Shown here: piece by piece, positions 41,191 through 49,110 of the stretch | Numbering within the stretch: the stretch's first letter is position 1 | Layout: each line of letters starts with the position of its first letter | NCBI RefSeq assembly: GCF_001854245.1 | Contig: NZ_CP015381.1 | Coordinates: forward strand, 3,507,001 to 3,571,000 | Source of the DNA: Desulfococcus multivorans | GTDB lineage: Bacteria > Desulfobacterota > Desulfobacteria > Desulfobacterales > Desulfococcaceae | Direction: 5' to 3' | DNA: 64,000 nucleotides | The notes under the pieces: generated by a model | What the model saw: only the letters and a program-made list of their open reading frames with translations | Database searches by the model: none | What the model was told of the DNA's origin: nothing | Program-made: the position numbers and the translations under genes

Positions 41191-41526
41191 GATATCATTA
41201 TTGGTTTTGGGGTTATGACGTCTGTTCGGAAAGTGGTAACATCGGATCTTTATCCCTGTCAAGCGGAATGGCGCGGATGGACCCCATCGGACCGCAACAA
41301 ATTTTACACCCTGTAAAGGATTTCGACACCCGGACGTCCCGCCGGCCTCGGCACGTCCGCCCCCATCGGGGTATCGCAATGGATCTCAACCGGTTAAGTA
41401 CGGGACATTATGAGCATTCATTGGCACGGACTTTGCTGATTTTACCTTACATTCCTGCAAAGGAACAGCGACCGGACCCAATCGTCCCGTCATTCCAGAA
41501 CACCCTGTGCCTTCAGAGGGATATCG
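41191..41526. other. Divergent intergenic region with sigma-54 promoter
   Basis: About 336 bases between the acyl-CoA dehydrogenase gene and the first receiver gene. The left part (41191-41260) would hold the minus-strand promoter. The right part contains the -24/-12 promoter at 41421-41437. I see no gene and no clear enhancer palindrome. Confidence 0.6.
41421..41437 (+). promoter_or_regulatory. Sigma-54 (RpoN) -24/-12 promoter
   Basis: TTGGCACGGACTTTGCT matches the consensus TGGCACG-N4-TTGCT exactly, with the invariant GG at 41423-41424 and GC at 41435-41436, 12 bases apart. Transcription would start near 41448 and leave a leader of about 80 bases before the TTG start of the first receiver gene. 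It should require a bacterial enhancer-binding protein, none of which is in the window. Confidence 0.85.
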
Positions 41527-41946
41527 TTGAAATCGTCTCTACACATATTGGTTGCCGACCGGAACCCACACGTGCGGGAATTCATCAAACGCGAGATGGC
41601 CGCCGAGGGGCATCGTATCGATATCGCGGAAAACGGCAGGGAACTCCTGAAGCGGATCTTCCGCGATGACACCATCGATCTCCTGATCCTGGACCCCGAC
41701 CTTCCCGACGCCCAGGAATCCGCCCTGCTCACCAAGCTTCAGGATCGTCTCCCATACATCCCGGTGGTGTTTCACACCTTTCTTTCAGATTATCAGAACC
41801 GCCTCGACATCGTCAATGCCCTCGGCTATGTCGAGAAAGGCGCCAGAAGCATCGAGCATCTGAAACGCATCATTTCGGATTTTCGCAAAAATACGGGTCC
41901 GTCGACACTTGACGCCGTCAGGAAAAGAAAGCAGCCCGGCAAATGA
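41527..41946 (+). CDS. Stand-alone receiver domain protein (first)
   Basis: A 139-residue single-domain response regulator. The phosphoacceptor is Asp56 in LLILDPDLPD. Only one acidic residue (Asp11 in VADRNPH) stands where two are usual, and Lys104 (YVEKG) takes the conserved Lys place. The start is TTG at 41527 with AGAGGG upstream. A short basic tail follows the domain but there is no DNA-binding domain. The stop overlaps the histidine kinase start (ATGA). It is the first gene after the sigma-54 promoter. Confidence 0.85.
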   Translation: MKSSLHILVADRNPHVREFIKREMAAEGHRIDIAENGRELLKRIFRDDTIDLLILDPDLPDAQESALLTKLQDRLPYIPVVFHTFLSDYQNRLDIVNALGYVEKGARSIEHLKRIISDFRKNTGPSTLDAVRKRKQPGK

Positions 41947-43673
41947 AATTTCCCAAGCGACATCGGCGCTCCGAAAGCGGCTATTATCAATCGTTAACCC
42001 GCTGGATGGCCCTGATCATCATCTTCGTCTCCATCACCCCCGTGATCCTGGTCAGCGGTTTCATCCTGAACGCGTTTCGAAACTCCTATCAAGCCAAGAT
42101 CTACGACCACCTGGGCGAGTTGGTGCTGAAAAAAACACAGAACATCGACAGCTTTTTATGGGAAAAACTGAGCGACATCCGGTATGTGGCGGCATCGACC
42201 CCCTTTGGAGAACTGACCCGGGAGGCGGTCATCCAGGAAAAACTGCGACACCTCAGGCGGGAGTTCGACACCGTCTTCGAAGATCTGGGCGTGGTGAACC
42301 ACGAGGGCGTCCAACTCGCCTACTCCGGACCCTTCGAGCTGGAATACGCCGATTACTCCGAGGCGGAATGGTTCAAATCGGCCATACAGACCCGTTATTA
42401 CATCAGCGACGTCTTCAGCGGGCTTCGGGGAAAACCCCACTTCATCGTCGCCGTCCGAAACATGCATGACGGAAAGCCGTGGATCCTCAGGGCGACCCTC
42501 GATTTTCTCTCCTTCAACACCCTGGTGGAGCGGCTTCGGATCGGCCAGACGGGTTTCGCCATCATCCTCAACAAGTACGGCGAATACCAGACCAAACCCT
42601 TCTTCGAAAACATCGAAATCAACAACAAGAACCTCTATCAGTTCATGAAACAGGCGGACCCCACCCCCAAGGGCATTCACATCGTGGAGCGCGCCGGATC
42701 CGACGGCCGCCGGAAGATCTATGTGGGATCCTTTCTCAAGGATGACGATTGGCTTCTGGTCTACCAACAGGACAAGGACGACGCCTTCGCGGACCTCCGC
42801 CACACCCAGGACATCGCCGTCATCATCATCGTCGTCAGCACCCTGGCCGTCATTGCCGTTGCCGTGATGCTCTCCATGAAAATGATCCACCGCATCAGCG
42901 TCTCCGACAAGGAAAAGGAGATCATGAACCAGCAGGTCATCGAGACCGGCAAACTGGCGTCCATCGGCGAACTGGCATCCGGCATCGCCCACGAGATCAA
43001 CAACCCCGTCGCCATCATGGTGGAGGAGGCGGGATGGATCGAGGATCTCCTCATGGAGGAGGATCTCCACCAATGCAAGAACCTCGAAGAGTTTCAGCGG
43101 GCCGTCGGCCAGATCCGTCTGCAGGGCAAACGCTGCAAGGAGATCACCCACAAACTCCTCAGTTTCGCCAGAAAAACCGATTCATGGGTGCAGGACGTAC
43201 AGATCAACGACCTCGTGGAGGAGGTGGTCAACCTCTCGTCCCAGAAGGCCAAATACACCAATGTCGACATCGTCACCCGTCTCGACCCGAACCTTCCGGC
43301 CATCCGGGCGTCCTATACGGAAGGACAGCAGGTTTTGCTGAACCTGATCAACAACGCCCTCTACGCCCTCGAATCGAAAAACGACCGGGGCCGTATCGAG
43401 ATCAACACGAAACTGGCGGACGACCATATCGTCATCGACGTCATCGACAACGGCAGCGGTATCCCCGCGGCCGTCATCCCGCGGATATTCGACCCCTTCT
43501 TCACCAGCAAACCGGTTGGAAAGGGAACCGGACTGGGTCTGTCCATCTGTTACGGCATCATCAAGAAGCTGGGCGGAGAGATCACCGTCGACAGCGTCCT
43601 CGGCGAAGGGACCCATTTCCAGATCCGGATCCCTTCGGAAAACCCCGGGACGCCCCTTTCCGGTGACACGTAA
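41943..43673 (+). CDS. Cache-domain sensor histidine kinase
   Basis: A 576-residue membrane kinase. TM1 is about residues 20-42, a periplasmic Cache-like sensor domain about 45-290, TM2 about 292-312. The HisKA helix carries His350 in GIAHEINNPVAI, and the HATPase has NLINNALYAL, DNGSGIPAAVIPRIFDPFFTSK and GTGLGLSICYGI. It should sense a small extracellular ligand, plausibly a carboxylate given the DASS transporter downstream, and phosphorylate one or more of the receivers in the cluster. Confidence 0.92.
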   Translation: MKFPKRHRRSESGYYQSLTRWMALIIIFVSITPVILVSGFILNAFRNSYQAKIYDHLGELVLKKTQNIDSFLWEKLSDIRYVAASTPFGELTREAVIQEKLRHLRREFDTVFEDLGVVNHEGVQLAYSGPFELEYADYSEAEWFKSAIQTRYYISDVFSGLRGKPHFIVAVRNMHDGKPWILRATLDFLSFNTLVERLRIGQTGFAIILNKYGEYQTKPFFENIEINNKNLYQFMKQADPTPKGIHIVERAGSDGRRKIYVGSFLKDDDWLLVYQQDKDDAFADLRHTQDIAVIIIVVSTLAVIAVAVMLSMKMIHRISVSDKEKEIMNQQVIETGKLASIGELASGIAHEINNPVAIMVEEAGWIEDLLMEEDLHQCKNLEEFQRAVGQIRLQGKRCKEITHKLLSFARKTDSWVQDVQINDLVEEVVNLSSQKAKYTNVDIVTRLDPNLPAIRASYTEGQQVLLNLINNALYALESKNDRGRIEINTKLADDHIVIDVIDNGSGIPAAVIPRIFDPFFTSKPVGKGTGLGLSICYGIIKKLGGEITVDSVLGEGTHFQIRIPSENPGTPLSGDT

Positions 43674-43749
43674 CAAAAACGACAACCCCGCCCGGGCACG
43701 GGCAAAAACCCGTCACCCGGTTCACGATAAAACTCAGGAGGAGAACATC

Positions 43750-43917
43750 ATGACGAATTGCACGTTTCTGTCGGCCGGCGGCATCCCGGGAAAGAAAACA
43801 CCACGACACGCCACCCGGGAACCGCTCTGCATTACCCGATTCAGCCCCGTTCGACATGCCTCCCGGGCGCTTCGGAGACGCAGGGCATGCCGAACGGTCG
43901 CCGGCAGCCGTTATTGA
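43750..43917 (+). CDS. Small ORF with strong ribosome-binding site
   Basis: A 55-residue frame between the kinase and the second receiver gene. It is preceded by AGGAGGAG six bases before the ATG, better than many real genes here. The product begins MTNCTFLSAGG and has a very basic, Arg-rich C-terminal half; I recognise no family. It may encode a small protein or a leader peptide, or the sequence may only provide ribosome loading for the next gene 21 bases on. Confidence 0.4.
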   Translation: MTNCTFLSAGGIPGKKTPRHATREPLCITRFSPVRHASRALRRRRACRTVAGSRY

Positions 43918-43938
43918 ACGCGCGGCAGGGAGAAAGAA

Positions 43939-44352
43939 ATGGCCCATAACGCGACAACAAAACCGTCGGAGACCCCTCCGACGATCCGGCTCCTCCTGGT
44001 GGACGACGAGGTGGGATATCTCAATGTCCTCTCCAATCGGCTCGCCAGGCGAGGACTCGACGTCGTCAAGGCCCGCAGCGGATCCGAGGCCATCCAGGCC
44101 GTCCGGAAACGGGATTTCGACGTCGTCGTGCTCGACCTTCTGATGGAGGACATGGACGGCATCGAGGTGCTCAGGATCCTGAAGAAGATGGATCCCGGCC
44201 TGATGGTGGTCATGCTGACCGGGCACGGTTCGGAGCAGGCCTCGAAGGAGGGCATGCGTTACGGCGCCTTCGATTACCTGACCAAACCGTGCGAACTCGA
44301 GGAACTTCTGGAAAAGATACGGGAAGCCTACCGCAGGAAAAGTCGTCCCTGA
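43939..44352 (+). CDS. Stand-alone receiver domain protein (second)
   Basis: A 137-residue CheY-like response regulator. The acidic pair is in LLLVDDEV, the phosphoacceptor is Asp66 in VVVLDLLMEDMDG, the Thr is in VMLTGHGS and the Lys in DYLTKPCE. The first 15 residues are a variable extension. There is no output domain. It lies between the Cache kinase and the DASS transporter gene, in the same direction. Confidence 0.92.
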   Translation: MAHNATTKPSETPPTIRLLLVDDEVGYLNVLSNRLARRGLDVVKARSGSEAIQAVRKRDFDVVVLDLLMEDMDGIEVLRILKKMDPGLMVVMLTGHGSEQASKEGMRYGAFDYLTKPCELEELLEKIREAYRRKSRP

Positions 44353-44516
44353 CGGCCGGGAGCGGTATTTCCCACGGCAATCATCAAGCGTCGACCATAC
44401 CGAAACGTCCCGACGCCCCGTTCAACTGAAAACGCCCGGCCGACGGCAGCCGCCGGGGTTCCCCCGATCGGGGAAGGCCATCGGGTCGTTGCCCACTCAA
44501 CAGCGAGGAAGTGACC

Positions 44517-46091
44517 ATGCTAAAGAATAAGAACGTACAACTCGGATTTGCAATATTTCTCGGTTTAATCGTGCTTTTCCTGCCCAGACCCGAAGGGACT
44601 CAGTTCAGGGTTGTCGGCGACGGCGGCCGCCTCCTCATCGAACACCTCGCCCAGCACTTCTCCGTGGTGCCCGGCGAGGAGGGGACCGCCGACTACATCC
44701 TGAAGGCCCGCAATCCGGGTGCCCCGGAAGCCCGACAGGCCTTCATCGCCCAAAAGGCTGCGGCGCTCGACCTTCCGGAGATTCAGGTGGAATACGTCGA
44801 CGGCCTCTCTCCCAAGGCCAAACGGTTCCTGGCGGTGCTGGTGGTCCTGGTCTTCATGTTCGTGGCCGAACCCATCCCTCTCGAGATCACCGCCATCTGT
44901 ATCGGCGTTTTCCTCGTTCTCATGGGCATCTCCGACGTCAAGGAGGCCTGGGCCCCCTATATGCACCCCGTGGTCGTTTTCATCATGTGCTGCCTCATCT
45001 TCGCCATCTCCCTCGACAAGGCGGGCCTCACCAAACGCCTCGGCTATTTCATCATCAAGCAGGCCGGCGACTCCGTCACCCGCTTTACCTTCATCATCTC
45101 CATCGGACTGGGGCTCGGCTCGTCGGTGATGCACGACGCGGCCGCCTGCGCCGTCGGGATCGTCACCATGCTCCCCCTCATGCGGGCCGCGGGCATCGAA
45201 CCCCACTCCAGAACGGCCAAGTTCATGATGCTTTCCCTGCCCTTCGCCTGCTCCGCCGGCGGCATGGGAACCCTCATGGGCGGCGGCCGGAACATGGTGG
45301 CGGCCGCTTTTCTAAAAGAGTTCACCGGCATCGAGATCACCTTCTTCGACTGGATCAAGTTCTGCATGCCGGCGGCCATCCTGACGGTTCCCGCGGCGGT
45401 GTTCATCGTTTATCTGGTCTATCGGCCGGATCCCAAAATCAAGCTTCCCCAGTTCGATGAGGCGCTCGGCCCCCTCACCCCCATGGAAAAGAAGACCCTC
45501 GCCATCATCGGGGCCACCTTTATCCTCTGGCTCACCAAGGGCGTTCACGGCTTCGACTATTCAGTCACCGGCATGCTGGGCATCGCCGGACTGGTCCTGG
45601 GCGGCGTGCTCAAGTGGGACGACATCCAGGAGAACATGGAATGGGGCACGGCGCTCTTCATCTTCGGCGGCGGGATCTCCCTGGGGCTCGCCATGGGATA
45701 CTCGGGGGCGGCCGACTACTTCGCCCATCTCTTCTTCCCCCTGATCCAGGGGGGCGGCTGGTTCCTTCTTTTCGTGGGCGTCGGCGTGTTCGGGGCATTG
45801 GTCACCAACGCCATGGCCAACGTGGCCGCGGCAGCCCTGATTCTGCCCATCGTGATCCCCATGGCCCAGCTGGAGGGCGTCGACCCGACGGTCCTGGCCC
45901 TCTGCCTTGGGACGGCCACTTCCTTTGCCATGCTCCTGGTGATCGGCTGTCCTCCCAACGCCATCGCCTACAGCTACCGGTACTTCAAGGCCGCCGACCT
46001 GACCCGGGTCGGCCTGGTGGCCACGCCGGTTCTCCTGGCCCTCCTGATCCTGGTGGCGGCCACCTGGTGGAACATCCTGGGACTGGTGTAG
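44517..46091 (+). CDS. SLC13/DASS-family anion:sodium symporter
   Basis: A 524-residue polytopic transporter. Membrane segments begin at residue 8; a soluble loop of about 75 residues (roughly 28-100) lies between the first two, longer than usual. Family regions are FIMCCLIFAISLDKAGLTKRL, the first-half hairpin ACSAGGMGTLMGGGRN and the second-half VTNAMANVAAAALILPIVIP and IGCPPNAIAYSY. DASS proteins take up dicarboxylates, citrate or sulfate with sodium; the substrate is not readable here. The start is ATG at 44517 with GAGGA upstream; GTG at 44511 is possible. Confidence 0.92.
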   Translation: MLKNKNVQLGFAIFLGLIVLFLPRPEGTQFRVVGDGGRLLIEHLAQHFSVVPGEEGTADYILKARNPGAPEARQAFIAQKAAALDLPEIQVEYVDGLSPKAKRFLAVLVVLVFMFVAEPIPLEITAICIGVFLVLMGISDVKEAWAPYMHPVVVFIMCCLIFAISLDKAGLTKRLGYFIIKQAGDSVTRFTFIISIGLGLGSSVMHDAAACAVGIVTMLPLMRAAGIEPHSRTAKFMMLSLPFACSAGGMGTLMGGGRNMVAAAFLKEFTGIEITFFDWIKFCMPAAILTVPAAVFIVYLVYRPDPKIKLPQFDEALGPLTPMEKKTLAIIGATFILWLTKGVHGFDYSVTGMLGIAGLVLGGVLKWDDIQENMEWGTALFIFGGGISLGLAMGYSGAADYFAHLFFPLIQGGGWFLLFVGVGVFGALVTNAMANVAAAALILPIVIPMAQLEGVDPTVLALCLGTATSFAMLLVIGCPPNAIAYSYRYFKAADLTRVGLVATPVLLALLILVAATWWNILGLV

Positions 46092-46097
46092 GCTTTC

Positions 46098-47375
46098 ATG
46101 GAATCGACACATGCCCTGGAAAATATCCGGATGCTCCTCGTGGAAGATGAGGCCTACTTCCGGAGCACCCTGAAAAAACGCCTTGAACGGCGGGGGATGA
46201 CGCTCTTCGAGGCCGCCGACGGGGAAGCGGGCCTCGCCGCCCTGACGGAACACCCGGTTGACATCGTCATCACGGACATGAAAATGCCCGGAATGGACGG
46301 CCTTACGTTTCTCAAACGCGTCAAGGCGGATTACCCGGAAATCGAGGTCATCCTTCTGACGGGGCACGCCTCCACCACCGACGGCGTCGCCGGCATCAAG
46401 GCCGGCGCCTTCGACTACCTCACGAAACCCGTGGAGTTCGATCACCTGATGAGCAAGGTGGGACAGGCCTACGACCTGATTCTCCGTCGTCAGGCCCAGC
46501 GCAGGGAGGCCGAGCTCCACGAACGAATGGAACGGCAGATGGCCCTGACCGAACGGCTGGCCGCCCTGGGAACACTGGCCACCGGGGTGGCCCACGAGAT
46601 CAACAATCCTCTGGCCATCATCCGGGAGTCGGCCGGCTGGATGGAGACGATCCTCAAAAAGCCTGAAATGGCTGATATGCCCCGAAAAACGGATTTCGAA
46701 AAAGGTCTCGACAAGATCGAGAAGGCCGTCGAAAGGGCCAGACGCATTACGCACCAGCTCCTGGAGTTCGTCCGAAAGCCGGACAAGAAAGCCGCGGAAA
46801 CGGATCTGAAGGCCCTGATCGAGGAGTCCGCCCACCTGATCCACCGGGAAGCGGCCAACAAGGGCGTTGACATCGTCGAGGAACTGGATGAAAATGTGGG
46901 AACGATCATGAGCGATCCCTACCAGCTGCGCCAGGTCCTCCTCAACCTTATAACCAACGCCGTCCACGCCACGGAAAAAAGCGGAAGGATCACACTGGGT
47001 CTGGAAAATGCCCCGGGGGAATCGGTCCGGATCCGGGTGAGCGACACCGGATCGGGGATCGCCCCCGAAAACCTCGAAAAAATATTCGAACCTTTTTTCA
47101 CGACCAAAAGTCCCGGCAAGGGCACGGGGCTGGGACTGTTTGTCACCCGGGGGATCGTCGAGCAACTGGGCGGCACCATCGAGGTGGAAAGCACCTTGAA
47201 CGCGGGGACGACCTTCACCGTCACCCTTCCCCGATCCATCATACCCCGGGAGGCATCAGCGGAAGCGCCCAGAAAGCAGCGGCCGGGGATATTTCAAAAG
47301 ATAACCCAAGCACTATCCAAGGAGACCCAACACCATGATCAAGATTCCGACCCGCATACTCGTCGTGGACGATGA
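46098..47375 (+). CDS. Hybrid receiver-histidine kinase (soluble)
   Basis: A 425-residue protein with no membrane segment: N-terminal receiver (Asp60 in IVITDMKMPGMDG, Lys in YLTKPVE), a short coiled coil about residues 125-150, HisKA with His166 in GVAHEINNPLAI, and HATPase (NLITNAVHA, DTGSGIAPENLEKIFEPFF, GTGLGLFVT). The order receiver-then-kinase suits a phosphorelay in which an upstream kinase modulates this one. Its last 41 bases overlap the next receiver gene. It starts six bases after the transporter's stop. Confidence 0.92.
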   Translation: MESTHALENIRMLLVEDEAYFRSTLKKRLERRGMTLFEAADGEAGLAALTEHPVDIVITDMKMPGMDGLTFLKRVKADYPEIEVILLTGHASTTDGVAGIKAGAFDYLTKPVEFDHLMSKVGQAYDLILRRQAQRREAELHERMERQMALTERLAALGTLATGVAHEINNPLAIIRESAGWMETILKKPEMADMPRKTDFEKGLDKIEKAVERARRITHQLLEFVRKPDKKAAETDLKALIEESAHLIHREAANKGVDIVEELDENVGTIMSDPYQLRQVLLNLITNAVHATEKSGRITLGLENAPGESVRIRVSDTGSGIAPENLEKIFEPFFTTKSPGKGTGLGLFVTRGIVEQLGGTIEVESTLNAGTTFTVTLPRSIIPREASAEAPRKQRPGIFQKITQALSKETQHHDQDSDPHTRRGR

Positions 47376-47781
47376 AAAGGACTTTGTGGAAATGCTCTCC
47401 CTCAGGCTCGAGGAAACCGGGGAAAAGGTGACGGTTGCCTATGACGGCCAGGAATGCCTCGACATTCTTGCCCAGAAATCGAAAGAGATCGATGTGGTCA
47501 TCCTCGACATCCGCATGCCGGGGATGGACGGCATCGACGTTCTTCGCGAGATCAAGAAGCGTTTTCCCTTGATCGAAGTAATCATGCTCACCGGCCACGG
47601 CACCACCGAAAGCGCTGTCGAGGGCATGAAGCTGGGCGCCTTCGATTATCTGCTCAAGCCGGCCGACTTCGAAGATCTTTCCAAAAAACTCGAGGGCGCC
47701 CGGAAACGGAAGGACGAACAGGAGGAACGTATCCGACGCGCCGAAGCCAAGCTGCTGGTCCGCAGAACCGGCGGCACGTGA
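47335..47781 (+). CDS. Stand-alone receiver domain protein (third)
   Basis: A 148-residue response regulator: acidic pair in ILVVDDEKDF, Asp58 in VVILDIRMPGMDG, Thr in IMLTGHGTTES and Lys in DYLLKPADFED. The C-terminal about 30 residues form a charged helix (KRKDEQEERIRRAEAK) and not a DNA-binding domain. AAGGAGA lies 11 bases before the ATG, and the gene begins inside the end of the hybrid kinase gene. Confidence 0.92.
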   Translation: MIKIPTRILVVDDEKDFVEMLSLRLEETGEKVTVAYDGQECLDILAQKSKEIDVVILDIRMPGMDGIDVLREIKKRFPLIEVIMLTGHGTTESAVEGMKLGAFDYLLKPADFEDLSKKLEGARKRKDEQEERIRRAEAKLLVRRTGGT

Positions 47782-47982
47782 TGCCGGAAACCGCCTTTTT
47801 GCCGAGAGTCGGTTCTCCGTCGTCTTCTGGCCAAGGCTTTTTTCGAAAGGCCCCTGAAGGCTCGCCTTGCCTGAACCCCTCGATTCGGCTATATTTGCCG
47901 AAAAACGCCGATCGGATCCGGGGCCCTTTTCCGGGCGCCCGGGACCGCCGGCACGACCTTCGGAGCGGAAGGAGAGGGGTCA

Positions 47983-49110
47983 ATGGGAAAACATCTGGTC
48001 CTGGTGGGGGGCGGTCACGCACATCTGACGCTCCTCACCCATTTTGACCGGTTTACCGGCGGCGGCTGCCGCGCCACCGTCATCAGCCGAAGCGCCTATC
48101 ATTATTATTCAGGCATGGGACCGGGACTGCTGTCGGACGTCTATGCCCCTCAAGACGTCCGCTTTCACATCCGACGAATGACGGAGGATCGCGGGGGACG
48201 GTTTGTCGAAGACGGGGTGACGCGGGTGGACCCCGGGGCGAGGCTCCTGTACCGGCGGCACGGGGCACCCATCGCCTATGACGTCGTCTCCTTCAACACC
48301 GGCAGTTCGGTGGACTTCGACGCGGCCCGCAGCCTGAAGGCCCGATCGGTCTTTCCGGTAAAACCCATCGAGAACCTTCTGGCCGCCCGGGAGGCTGTTC
48401 GCAGACGTCTCAAGAGCGGCCCCCTGCGCCTCTGCGTGGCCGGCGGTGGTCCGGCGGGCATCGAGCTCTCGGCCAATCTGAGAAGCCTGGTCCGTCGGGA
48501 AGGGGGAGAGGCCGAGATCGTGCTGCTGGCCGGAAGCCGGCTTCTCTCCCATTTCCCAGGCCGCAGACTCAGGACGTGCGTCAAAAAGGAACTCCGCCGA
48601 CAGGAAGTCACCATGGTGGAAGGTCTTCGTCTCGCAGGCCTGGACGACCAATCGGTGACGCTCTCCGACGGATCGACACGCCCTGTCGACCTTCTCCTCC
48701 TGGCAACGGGAACGCGACCGTCGCGCATTTTTCGGGACTCGGGCCTCCCTGTCGGCGACGACGGCGGCCTGTTGGTGGATGACACCCTCCGGGCCGTCGA
48801 CCATCCCGAAATTTTCGGAGGCGGCGACTGCATCGCCTTCGGCCCCCGACCCCTTCCCAGGATCGGCGTCCATGCGGTCCGTCAGAATCCCGTCCTGCTG
48901 AACAACCTGACCGCCGCCTTGATGGACCGGGGCGCGCTCCAGCCTTACAAGCCCCAACGGTCCTGTCTGTTGATCCTCAATATGGGCGACGGCCGGGGGA
49001 TCCTATTCAAAAACGGTATCGCATGGCGCGGCAGGTGGGCCTTCCGGATAAAAGACTGGATCGACAGGAACTTCATGAAAAAATTTCAGGTCAGCGGCGA
49101 AACCGGCTGA
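47983..49110 (+). CDS. FAD/NAD-dependent oxidoreductase, NDH-2/SelD-N-like
   Basis: A 375-residue two-dinucleotide-fold protein: FAD site LVLVGGGHAHLTLL, NAD site LCVAGGGPAGIELS, then LLATGTRPSRIF and FGGGDCIAFG for the second FAD contact. The GGGHAH opening and YYSGMGPGLLSDVY match the NADH-dehydrogenase-like domain that in some bacteria is fused to the N-terminus of SelD. No selD is attached or adjacent here. It follows the signalling cluster after 200 bases. Confidence 0.85.
   Translation: MGKHLVLVGGGHAHLTLLTHFDRFTGGGCRATVISRSAYHYYSGMGPGLLSDVYAPQDVRFHIRRMTEDRGGRFVEDGVTRVDPGARLLYRRHGAPIAYDVVSFNTGSSVDFDAARSLKARSVFPVKPIENLLAAREAVRRRLKSGPLRLCVAGGGPAGIELSANLRSLVRREGGEAEIVLLAGSRLLSHFPGRRLRTCVKKELRRQEVTMVEGLRLAGLDDQSVTLSDGSTRPVDLLLLATGTRPSRIFRDSGLPVGDDGGLLVDDTLRAVDHPEIFGGGDCIAFGPRPLPRIGVHAVRQNPVLLNNLTAALMDRGALQPYKPQRSCLLILNMGDGRGILFKNGIAWRGRWAFRIKDWIDRNFMKKFQVSGETG

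What the first reader, a model, noticed from the sequence alone, without database searches (positions are those of the whole stretch)
41421..47781. Sigma-54-driven phosphorelay cluster built around a DASS transporter, with no DNA-binding output
A consensus -24/-12 promoter leads into receiver, Cache kinase, small ORF, receiver, SLC13/DASS symporter, receiver-kinase hybrid and receiver, all co-directional with tight or overlapping joins. Three stand-alone receivers plus a receiver-HK make a multistep relay, yet no protein in the run has a helix-turn-helix or AAA+ domain. Inference: the cluster senses a carboxylate or other anion outside the cell and controls transport through protein contacts, or feeds an enhancer-binding protein encoded elsewhere. 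I know of no described system with exactly this order.
Basis: partly seen in the sequence, partly recalled or inferred. Interest (0 to 1): 0.65.

Follow-up and report, generated by a model that had tools for sequence, protein, structure and literature searches.

The report
Sulfate-uptake operon with conserved σ54 enhancer
A sulfate-reducing bacterium carries a salt-importer gene wrapped in sensor and relay genes that seem to lack an on-switch; the switch appears to be a regulator encoded elsewhere that reads a short DNA landmark shared by many related species.

Summary
The run is real: atypical receiver, Cache kinase, receiver, DASS symporter, receiver-kinase, receiver, behind a perfect -24/-12 promoter (41422-41437). 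The joins are not all tight (gaps of 265 and 158 nt), and the "small ORF" is absent from the nearest relative. The genome is Desulfococcus multivorans by exact size. Similar DASS/two-component clusters were published in 2025 as sulfate-uptake clusters, and 29 of 40 relative loci keep the core order, so the cluster itself is not new.

"No DNA-binding output" holds for the encoded proteins but not for the system. A palindrome (TTTACA-N3-TGTAAA-N7-GACA, 41303-41328) lies 119 bp upstream of the promoter. The genome has three perfect copies and one with one mismatch, each 111-119 bp before a σ54-type promoter. Palindrome plus promoter occurs in 78 of 194 genomes of the order; the reversed pattern in none. 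It co-occurs with one NtrC-type activator (71 of 78 versus 44 of 116 genomes; a control activator shows no association). Loci beside a different activator carry a different palindrome (4 of 4). The activator's D. multivorans ortholog lies about 316 kb away.

Best reading: a σ54/NtrC-type sulfate-uptake regulon. The lone receivers' role is unresolved.

The parts
41303..41328 (+). Enhancer-like palindrome (UAS) TTTACA-N3-TGTAAA-N7-GACA
   Evidence: Perfect match; one of 3 perfect sites in the 4.46-Mb genome; in window shuffles 0; conserved upstream of the cluster in relatives
41422..41437 (+). -24/-12 sigma-54 promoter TGGCACGGACTTTGCT
   Evidence: Perfect consensus; 119 bp start-to-start downstream of the UAS; similar promoters before the first cluster gene in 19 of 37 regions at up to 1 mismatch, shuffles 0.07
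41527..41946 (+). RR1, atypical lone receiver (TTG start), second acidic-pair residue replaced by Arg
   Evidence: Response_reg E=1.1e-10; that position is non-acidic in 28 of 28 homologs aligned
41943..43673 (+). Membrane histidine kinase with dCache_1 sensor, HisKA, HATPase_c; His350
   Evidence: Pfam; His position
43750..43917 (+). 55-aa small ORF, probably not a conserved gene
   Evidence: Read by eye; absent from closest relative L009
43939..44352 (+). RR2, lone receiver
   Evidence: Response_reg E=1.4e-29
44511..46091 (+). DASS/SLC13 symporter (GTG start) with an extra N-terminal segment
   Evidence: Na_sulph_symp E=3.9e-57; TIGR00785 dass 237 bits over cut-off 198.6
46098..47375 (+). 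Receiver-HisKA-HATPase_c soluble kinase; His166
   Evidence: Pfam; His position
47335..47781 (+). RR3, lone receiver, overlaps the kinase gene
   Evidence: Response_reg E=1.3e-31

Best explanation
This is an anion-uptake operon, most likely for sulfate, of Desulfococcus multivorans. A Na+-coupled DASS symporter is packaged with two histidine kinases and three lone receivers. Its transcription is σ54-dependent: an NtrC-type response regulator (REC-AAA+ with GAFTGA-HTH), encoded with its own 4HB-type kinase about 316 kb away, binds the palindrome at 41303-41328 and activates the -24/-12 promoter at 41422-41437. In this genome the same enhancer-promoter unit also drives a second Cache-kinase/receiver/receiver-CBS/DASS cluster, a lone receiver orthologous to the one missing from this operon (beside a third DASS gene), and an AMP-dependent acyl-CoA synthetase. 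Shown by sequence: gene anatomy, promoter, enhancer, their fixed spacing and conservation, co-occurrence with the activator, and activator/enhancer co-variation. Inferred: binding, activation, substrate, and the role of the Cache kinase and lone receivers, most likely a separate arm tuning the transporter or the kinases by protein contact, because their kinases and receivers differ from the activator pair.
For: Perfect -24/-12. Promoter conserved before the first cluster gene in 19 of 37 regions at up to 1 mismatch versus 0.07 in shuffles, 0 on the opposite strand. UAS: 3 perfect plus 1 one-mismatch sites in the genome, each with a σ54-type site 111-119 bp downstream. Composite UAS plus promoter in 78 of 194 genomes, reversed control 0 of 194. 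Activator orthologs in 71 of 78 UAS-positive versus 44 of 116 UAS-negative genomes, Fisher p=1.4e-14; a control activator of the same genome 59 of 78 versus 86 of 116, p=0.87. Among the 35 activator genes I compared (a hand-picked subset), 14 lie within about 1 kb upstream, same strand, of a UAS-promoter. 4 of 4 loci whose only neighbouring activator is of the EBP2 type have GGGG-N7-CCCC and no TTTACA palindrome; 5 of 7 loci with only the first type have the latter. Activator carries Sigma54_activat, HTH_8 and REC in relatives; the D. multivorans ortholog (69% identical) has GAFTGA and its kinase an HTIRNP H-box unlike the cluster kinases' HEINNP. Receiver domains of RR2, RR3, RRx and the receiver-kinase are 40-57% identical to each other, 29-39% to the activator's receiver; RR1 is a further outlier (20-29%).
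Against: No binding or expression data. 7 of 78 UAS-positive genomes had no activator match at E<=1e-150 and 44 activator-positive genomes have no exact composite site. 18 of 37 cluster regions show no promoter at up to 1 mismatch. 2 of 7 loci with only the first activator type lack the palindrome. Genomes are related, so the Fisher test overstates independence. GGGG-N7-CCCC and the relaxed promoter consensus were chosen after seeing some sites. Regulon members in other genomes include Usp, CBS, CoA-transferase and porin genes, so the signal may be energy status rather than sulfate.
Confidence: 0.68

Rival explanations
1. The cluster's main output is post-translational: Cache kinase and receiver-kinase phosphorylate lone receivers that bind the DASS symporter and gate transport; transcription control is secondary.
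For: No receiver has an output domain in any relative seen; RR2 and DASS, and RR-HK and RR3, are neighbours in most loci; lone receivers and the receiver-kinase's receiver resemble each other rather than the activator.
Against: No contact shown; RR2 and the Cache kinase sit in a divergent unit away from DASS in L010 and L011; at least L084, L085, L103 and L116 have the DASS gene without these partners. Compatible with, not exclusive of, the best explanation.
Confidence: 0.35
2. Cache kinase and lone receivers act upstream of the distant activator, as connectors, phosphate sinks or a relay through it, so sulfate sensing sets transcription.
For: Activator and its kinase are neighbours of the cluster in many relatives (activator-type gene in 24 of 55 fetched loci); RR1-like genes often directly follow the activator and a UAS-promoter.
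Against: The activator has its own adjacent kinase with a different H-box, and its receiver differs from the lone receivers; no HPt in the run.
Confidence: 0.2
3. Published model for this class of cluster: the cluster's own response regulators bind the promoters directly (PMC11887813 calls them WalR type).
For: Stated in the passages and figure legend read.
Against: In this locus every response regulator is a bare receiver or receiver-kinase, and RR2, RR3 and RRx ORFs of relatives are of receiver length. CBS-fused receivers of the second cluster also lack an HTH match.
Confidence: 0.05
4. The palindrome is read by some other transcription factor, such as a repressor or another σ54 activator, and the co-occurring activator is a bystander.
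For: 7 UAS-positive genomes without the activator match; a composite site does not name its protein; D. multivorans has many other activators.
Against: One control activator shows no association; activator genes often sit next to a UAS-promoter; the palindrome is replaced where the other activator type is the neighbour.
Confidence: 0.2

Closest known systems
DASS-type sulfate transporter clusters of Desulfobacteraceae (PMC11887813, Sci Adv 2025; passages read)
   Same: DASS symporter genes clustered with Cache-domain kinases, response regulators and CBS proteins in sulfate reducers
   Different: In the passages read the regulators are modelled as WalR-type promoter binders; here they are bare receivers, and a σ54 promoter with a palindromic enhancer and an unlinked NtrC-type activator is proposed. 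I could not align to the Desulfosarcina variabilis proteins themselves
DctB/DctD-σ54 control of the C4-dicarboxylate carrier gene dctA (recalled, not tested)
   Same: σ54 promoter of an anion symporter activated by an NtrC-type response regulator with upstream sites
   Different: Different transporter family; here the operon also carries two kinases and three lone receivers, and the activator is unlinked in this genome
VcINDY and human NaS1 (SLC13A1), solved DASS/SLC13 structures
   Same: Same family: P0004 matches 4f35_D at E=4.7e-37 and 8y5u_A (SLC13A1) at 3.4e-20
   Different: The two SNT motifs of VcINDY align to HDA and ANV; extra N-terminal segment of about 100 residues before the matched part
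σ54 regulome of Desulfovibrio vulgaris (PMC4641369; passages read)
   Same: Many activators and σ54 promoters in a sulfate reducer, including some for transporters
   Different: In the 12 passages read, no DASS gene or this palindrome is described

Membership tests
DASS family sodium-coupled anion symporter (TIGR00785) | Score over the curated cut-off | tested here: met
   237.2 bits versus 198.6
DASS family sodium-coupled anion symporter (TIGR00785) | SNT motifs in both inverted repeats, as in VcINDY (motif importance recalled) | tested here: not met
   Aligned residues are HDA and ANV; MHDAA in 53 of 56 and TN..AN in 56 of 56 DASS ORFs. Affects substrate inference, not family membership by profile
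Desulfobacteraceae DASS/two-component sulfate-uptake cluster | DASS gene clustered with Cache kinases and response regulators | tested here: met
Desulfobacteraceae DASS/two-component sulfate-uptake cluster | CBS-domain protein in the cluster | tested here: not met
   None in the window run; the D. multivorans second DASS cluster has a receiver-CBS protein
Desulfobacteraceae DASS/two-component sulfate-uptake cluster | Symporter moves sulfate | not testable with these tools
   Annotated as sodium/sulfate symporters in this genome's paper (PMC5109826, passage); no assay
NtrC-type σ54 regulon | -24/-12 promoter | tested here: met
NtrC-type σ54 regulon | Upstream activator site at conserved spacing | tested here: met
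NtrC-type σ54 regulon | REC-AAA+(GAFTGA)-HTH activator in the genome | tested here: met
NtrC-type σ54 regulon | Activator binds the site and drives the promoter | not testable with these tools
   Needs binding and expression assays
Multistep phosphorelay (His-Asp-His-Asp) | HPt domain or protein linking receivers | tested here: not met
   No HPt in the run; genome not searched for HPt

The most novel reading that the evidence does not exclude
An order-wide σ54 regulon, marked by a TTTACA-N3-TGTAAA enhancer and run by one NtrC-type activator with a 4HB-type kinase, coordinates anion (sulfate) uptake operons with energy- and stress-related genes in Desulfobacterota sulfate reducers. Inside it, Cache kinases and families of lone receivers, including an unusual receiver whose Mg2+-site aspartate pair is broken, form a second layer that adjusts the transporters or the activator by protein contact.
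Probability: 0.4. Interest if true: 0.72.

Novelty: new variant of a known kind. Interest (0 to 1): 0.55.

Why it matters
Sulfate uptake is the first step of dissimilatory sulfate reduction, and how sulfate reducers control it is largely inferred. If right, this replaces a model in which the cluster's own regulators bind DNA with a named, unlinked activator, a defined binding site, and a short list of target promoters in an organism with a complete genome and proteomes. Each piece can be tested directly by gel shift, footprinting or reporter assay. It also poses a clear question: what do three or four bare receivers per transporter do, if transcription is handled by another protein?

Tried and rejected
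Promoter and terminator scan: σ70-like and terminator-like sites near chance, no use. Rfam on 41200-48000: 0 families, so no riboswitch-type explanation from Rfam. Small ORF as a receiver remnant: considered, not tested by alignment; the missing receiver RRx was found elsewhere in the genome. dsrA as a marker linking the enhancer to sulfate reduction: 167 of 194 genomes have it, so uninformative. BirA site as identity of the palindrome: the published consensus has a 14-15-nt gap (PMC545781, passages), rejected. Literature searches for a σ54/enhancer link to sulfate uptake: searches listed none that I recognised (listings; passages of PMC11887813, PMC5840216, PMC4641369, PMC5109826, PMC545781 and PMC12316311 read). 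No supplements, and Figure 5C of PMC11887813 not seen. Structure prediction and fold search were not used.

Promoter regions were limited to loci with a Cache kinase upstream of DASS and at least 300 nt of flank (36 loci plus the window). One search's distance list used 35 of the roughly 120 activator matches and a hand-picked part of the UAS sites printed, chosen mostly because they share contigs, so '14 of 35' is not an unbiased rate. One search's and one search's match lists were truncated in print. One search used the 30 loci returned, of which 28 gave an ORF. One search's first look at relatives was superseded.

Full report
WHAT IS THERE. The window lies at 3507001-3571000 of a one-contig 4,455,399-base genome, the exact size published for Desulfococcus multivorans (PMC5109826, passage). 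From 41527 to 47781 six co-directional genes encode a lone receiver (RR1), a dCache_1 histidine kinase, a lone receiver (RR2), a DASS symporter, a receiver-HisKA-HATPase kinase and a lone receiver (RR3). No HTH, AAA+ or HPt domain matched. Joins are overlapping or short except 265 nt (CacheHK to RR2) and 158 nt (RR2 to DASS). A perfect -24/-12 element is at 41422-41437.

CONSERVATION OF THE CLUSTER. Relatives of the symporter were found in 22 loci of public genomes and at high identity in many of 194 genomes of the order. Of 55 non-duplicate loci with the symporter, 40 have at least 3.8 kb upstream and 3 kb downstream; 29 of these 40 keep CacheHK, RR2, DASS, RR-HK and RR3. A fourth receiver, RRx, lies between CacheHK and RR2 in most (34 of 48 loci with enough upstream DNA have RRx upstream). 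It is missing from the window and its sister L009, but the D. multivorans ortholog (up to 80% identical to cluster RRx of relatives) is at about 1.192 Mb, convergent with another DASS gene.

IS IT KNOWN? A 2025 paper describes DASS/two-component clusters in Desulfobacteraceae, proposes that Cache kinases sense sulfate, and draws response regulators, called WalR type, on promoters (PMC11887813, abstract and passages). The D. multivorans genome paper calls six genes sodium/sulfate symporters and reports two, Dmul_C10650 and Dmul_C18630, as constitutively formed. By gene number these fall near the DASS genes at 1.19 and 2.08 Mb (my positional inference). So the cluster type is known; the regulatory route proposed below I did not find in the searches named in Tried and rejected.

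THE PROMOTER IS CONSERVED. In 37 regions upstream of the first cluster gene (36 loci plus window), 12 hold TGGCAYR-N4-TTGCW exactly and 19 with up to one mismatch; shuffles gave 0.01 and 0.07, the opposite strand 0. The relaxed consensus was chosen after a first scan. 18 regions show none.

AN ENHANCER UPSTREAM. Printing the upstream DNA showed a shared palindrome, TTTACA-N3-TGTAAA-N7-GACA, about 110-138 bp before the -24 element. In the whole D. multivorans genome there are three perfect sites (1191760, 2080936, 3548303 = window 41303) and one with one mismatch (2157976); the reversed pattern gave 2 sites at up to two mismatches against 7. All four have a σ54-type site 111-119 bp downstream. 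They precede RRx, the Cache-kinase/receiver/receiver-CBS/DASS cluster of L033, the window operon, and an AMP-binding acyl-CoA synthetase. The exact composite of palindrome, 80-110 nt and promoter occurs in 78 of 194 genomes; the reversed pattern in 0 of 194. Among the 28 of 30 returned loci with a readable downstream gene, the genes include Cache kinases, lone receivers, CBS proteins, universal stress proteins, CoA-transferases and a porin (some by eye).

THE ACTIVATOR. Many relatives carry next to the cluster a kinase with CHASE3/4HB sensor and an NtrC-type regulator with Response_reg, Sigma54_activat and HTH_8 (activator-type gene in 24 of 55 fetched loci). D. multivorans has a 69%-identical ortholog at 3231271-3232740 with GAFTGA, preceded by a 4HB kinase. 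Orthologs occur in 71 of 78 genomes with the composite site and 44 of 116 without (p=1.4e-14). A control activator of the same genome is in 59 of 78 and 86 of 116 (p=0.87). Activator genes often lie directly before a UAS-promoter (14 of 35 compared, a selected set). Where the only neighbouring activator is of a second type (EBP2), 4 of 4 loci have GGGG-N7-CCCC instead of the TTTACA palindrome; where it is of the first type only, 5 of 7 have the TTTACA palindrome at up to two mismatches. This swap is the evidence least explained by shared descent, though GGGG-N7-CCCC was read off these loci.

THE RECEIVERS. RR2, RR3, RRx and the receiver-kinase's receiver are 40-57% identical to each other and 29-39% to the activator's receiver. 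The cluster kinases share an HEINNP H-box followed by AGW; the activator's kinase has HTIRNP. This suggests two insulated arms (inference). RR1 is unusual: the second residue of the acidic pair is never acidic (R 23, P 3, K 1, H 1 of 28), while the phosphorylatable Asp (27 of 28) and the Lys (28 of 28) are kept. CheY variants with a basic residue there are recalled to be active without phosphate; I did not check this.

THE SYMPORTER. P0004 is a DASS protein by profile. Its best solved relatives are VcINDY entries, with human NaS1 further down. VcINDY's two SNT motifs align to HDA and ANV, and the replacements are conserved. This does not prove sulfate, but a plain dicarboxylate carrier is less likely.

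LIMITS. Everything is sequence-based. Genomes are related, match lists were truncated in print, and dsrA is too common in the order (167 of 194) to link the enhancer to sulfate reduction. The signal sensed by either kinase type is unknown.

Noticed in passing
window 41527-41946; relatives L009, L013, L016, L080 and others: RR1 family of receivers with the acidic pair Asp-Asp changed to Asp-Arg/Lys/Pro/His in 28 of 28 aligned members; often the gene right after the activator and a UAS-promoter.
   Followed up: partly
window 44511-46091: DASS protein has about 100 extra N-terminal residues before the part that matches VcINDY and lacks both SNT motifs.
   Followed up: partly
L034 5985-6419 (genome about 1191.98 kb): The receiver missing from this operon survives at another locus behind its own enhancer and σ54-type promoter, convergent with a third DASS gene.
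   Followed up: yes
L145 5102-6844 (genome about 2158.1 kb): An AMP-binding acyl-CoA synthetase sits behind the fourth enhancer-promoter unit, between two large genes that by eye resemble ADP-forming acyl-CoA synthetases.
   Followed up: partly
L165, L166, L169: In other genomes the same enhancer-promoter unit precedes universal stress protein genes (Pfam Usp; L168 and L172 look alike by eye).
   Followed up: partly
L012, L017, L100, L107: Loci beside a second activator type carry a GGGG-N7-CCCC palindrome 117-167 bp before the promoter.
   Followed up: partly
L031 7506-9098 (-): A close paralog of the window symporter (66%) stands alone in the same genome, without neighbouring kinases or receivers; only a weak two-mismatch palindrome lies upstream.
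   Followed up: no
L018 695-2275 and 4247-5830: One relative has two copies of this symporter type in one cluster.
   Followed up: no
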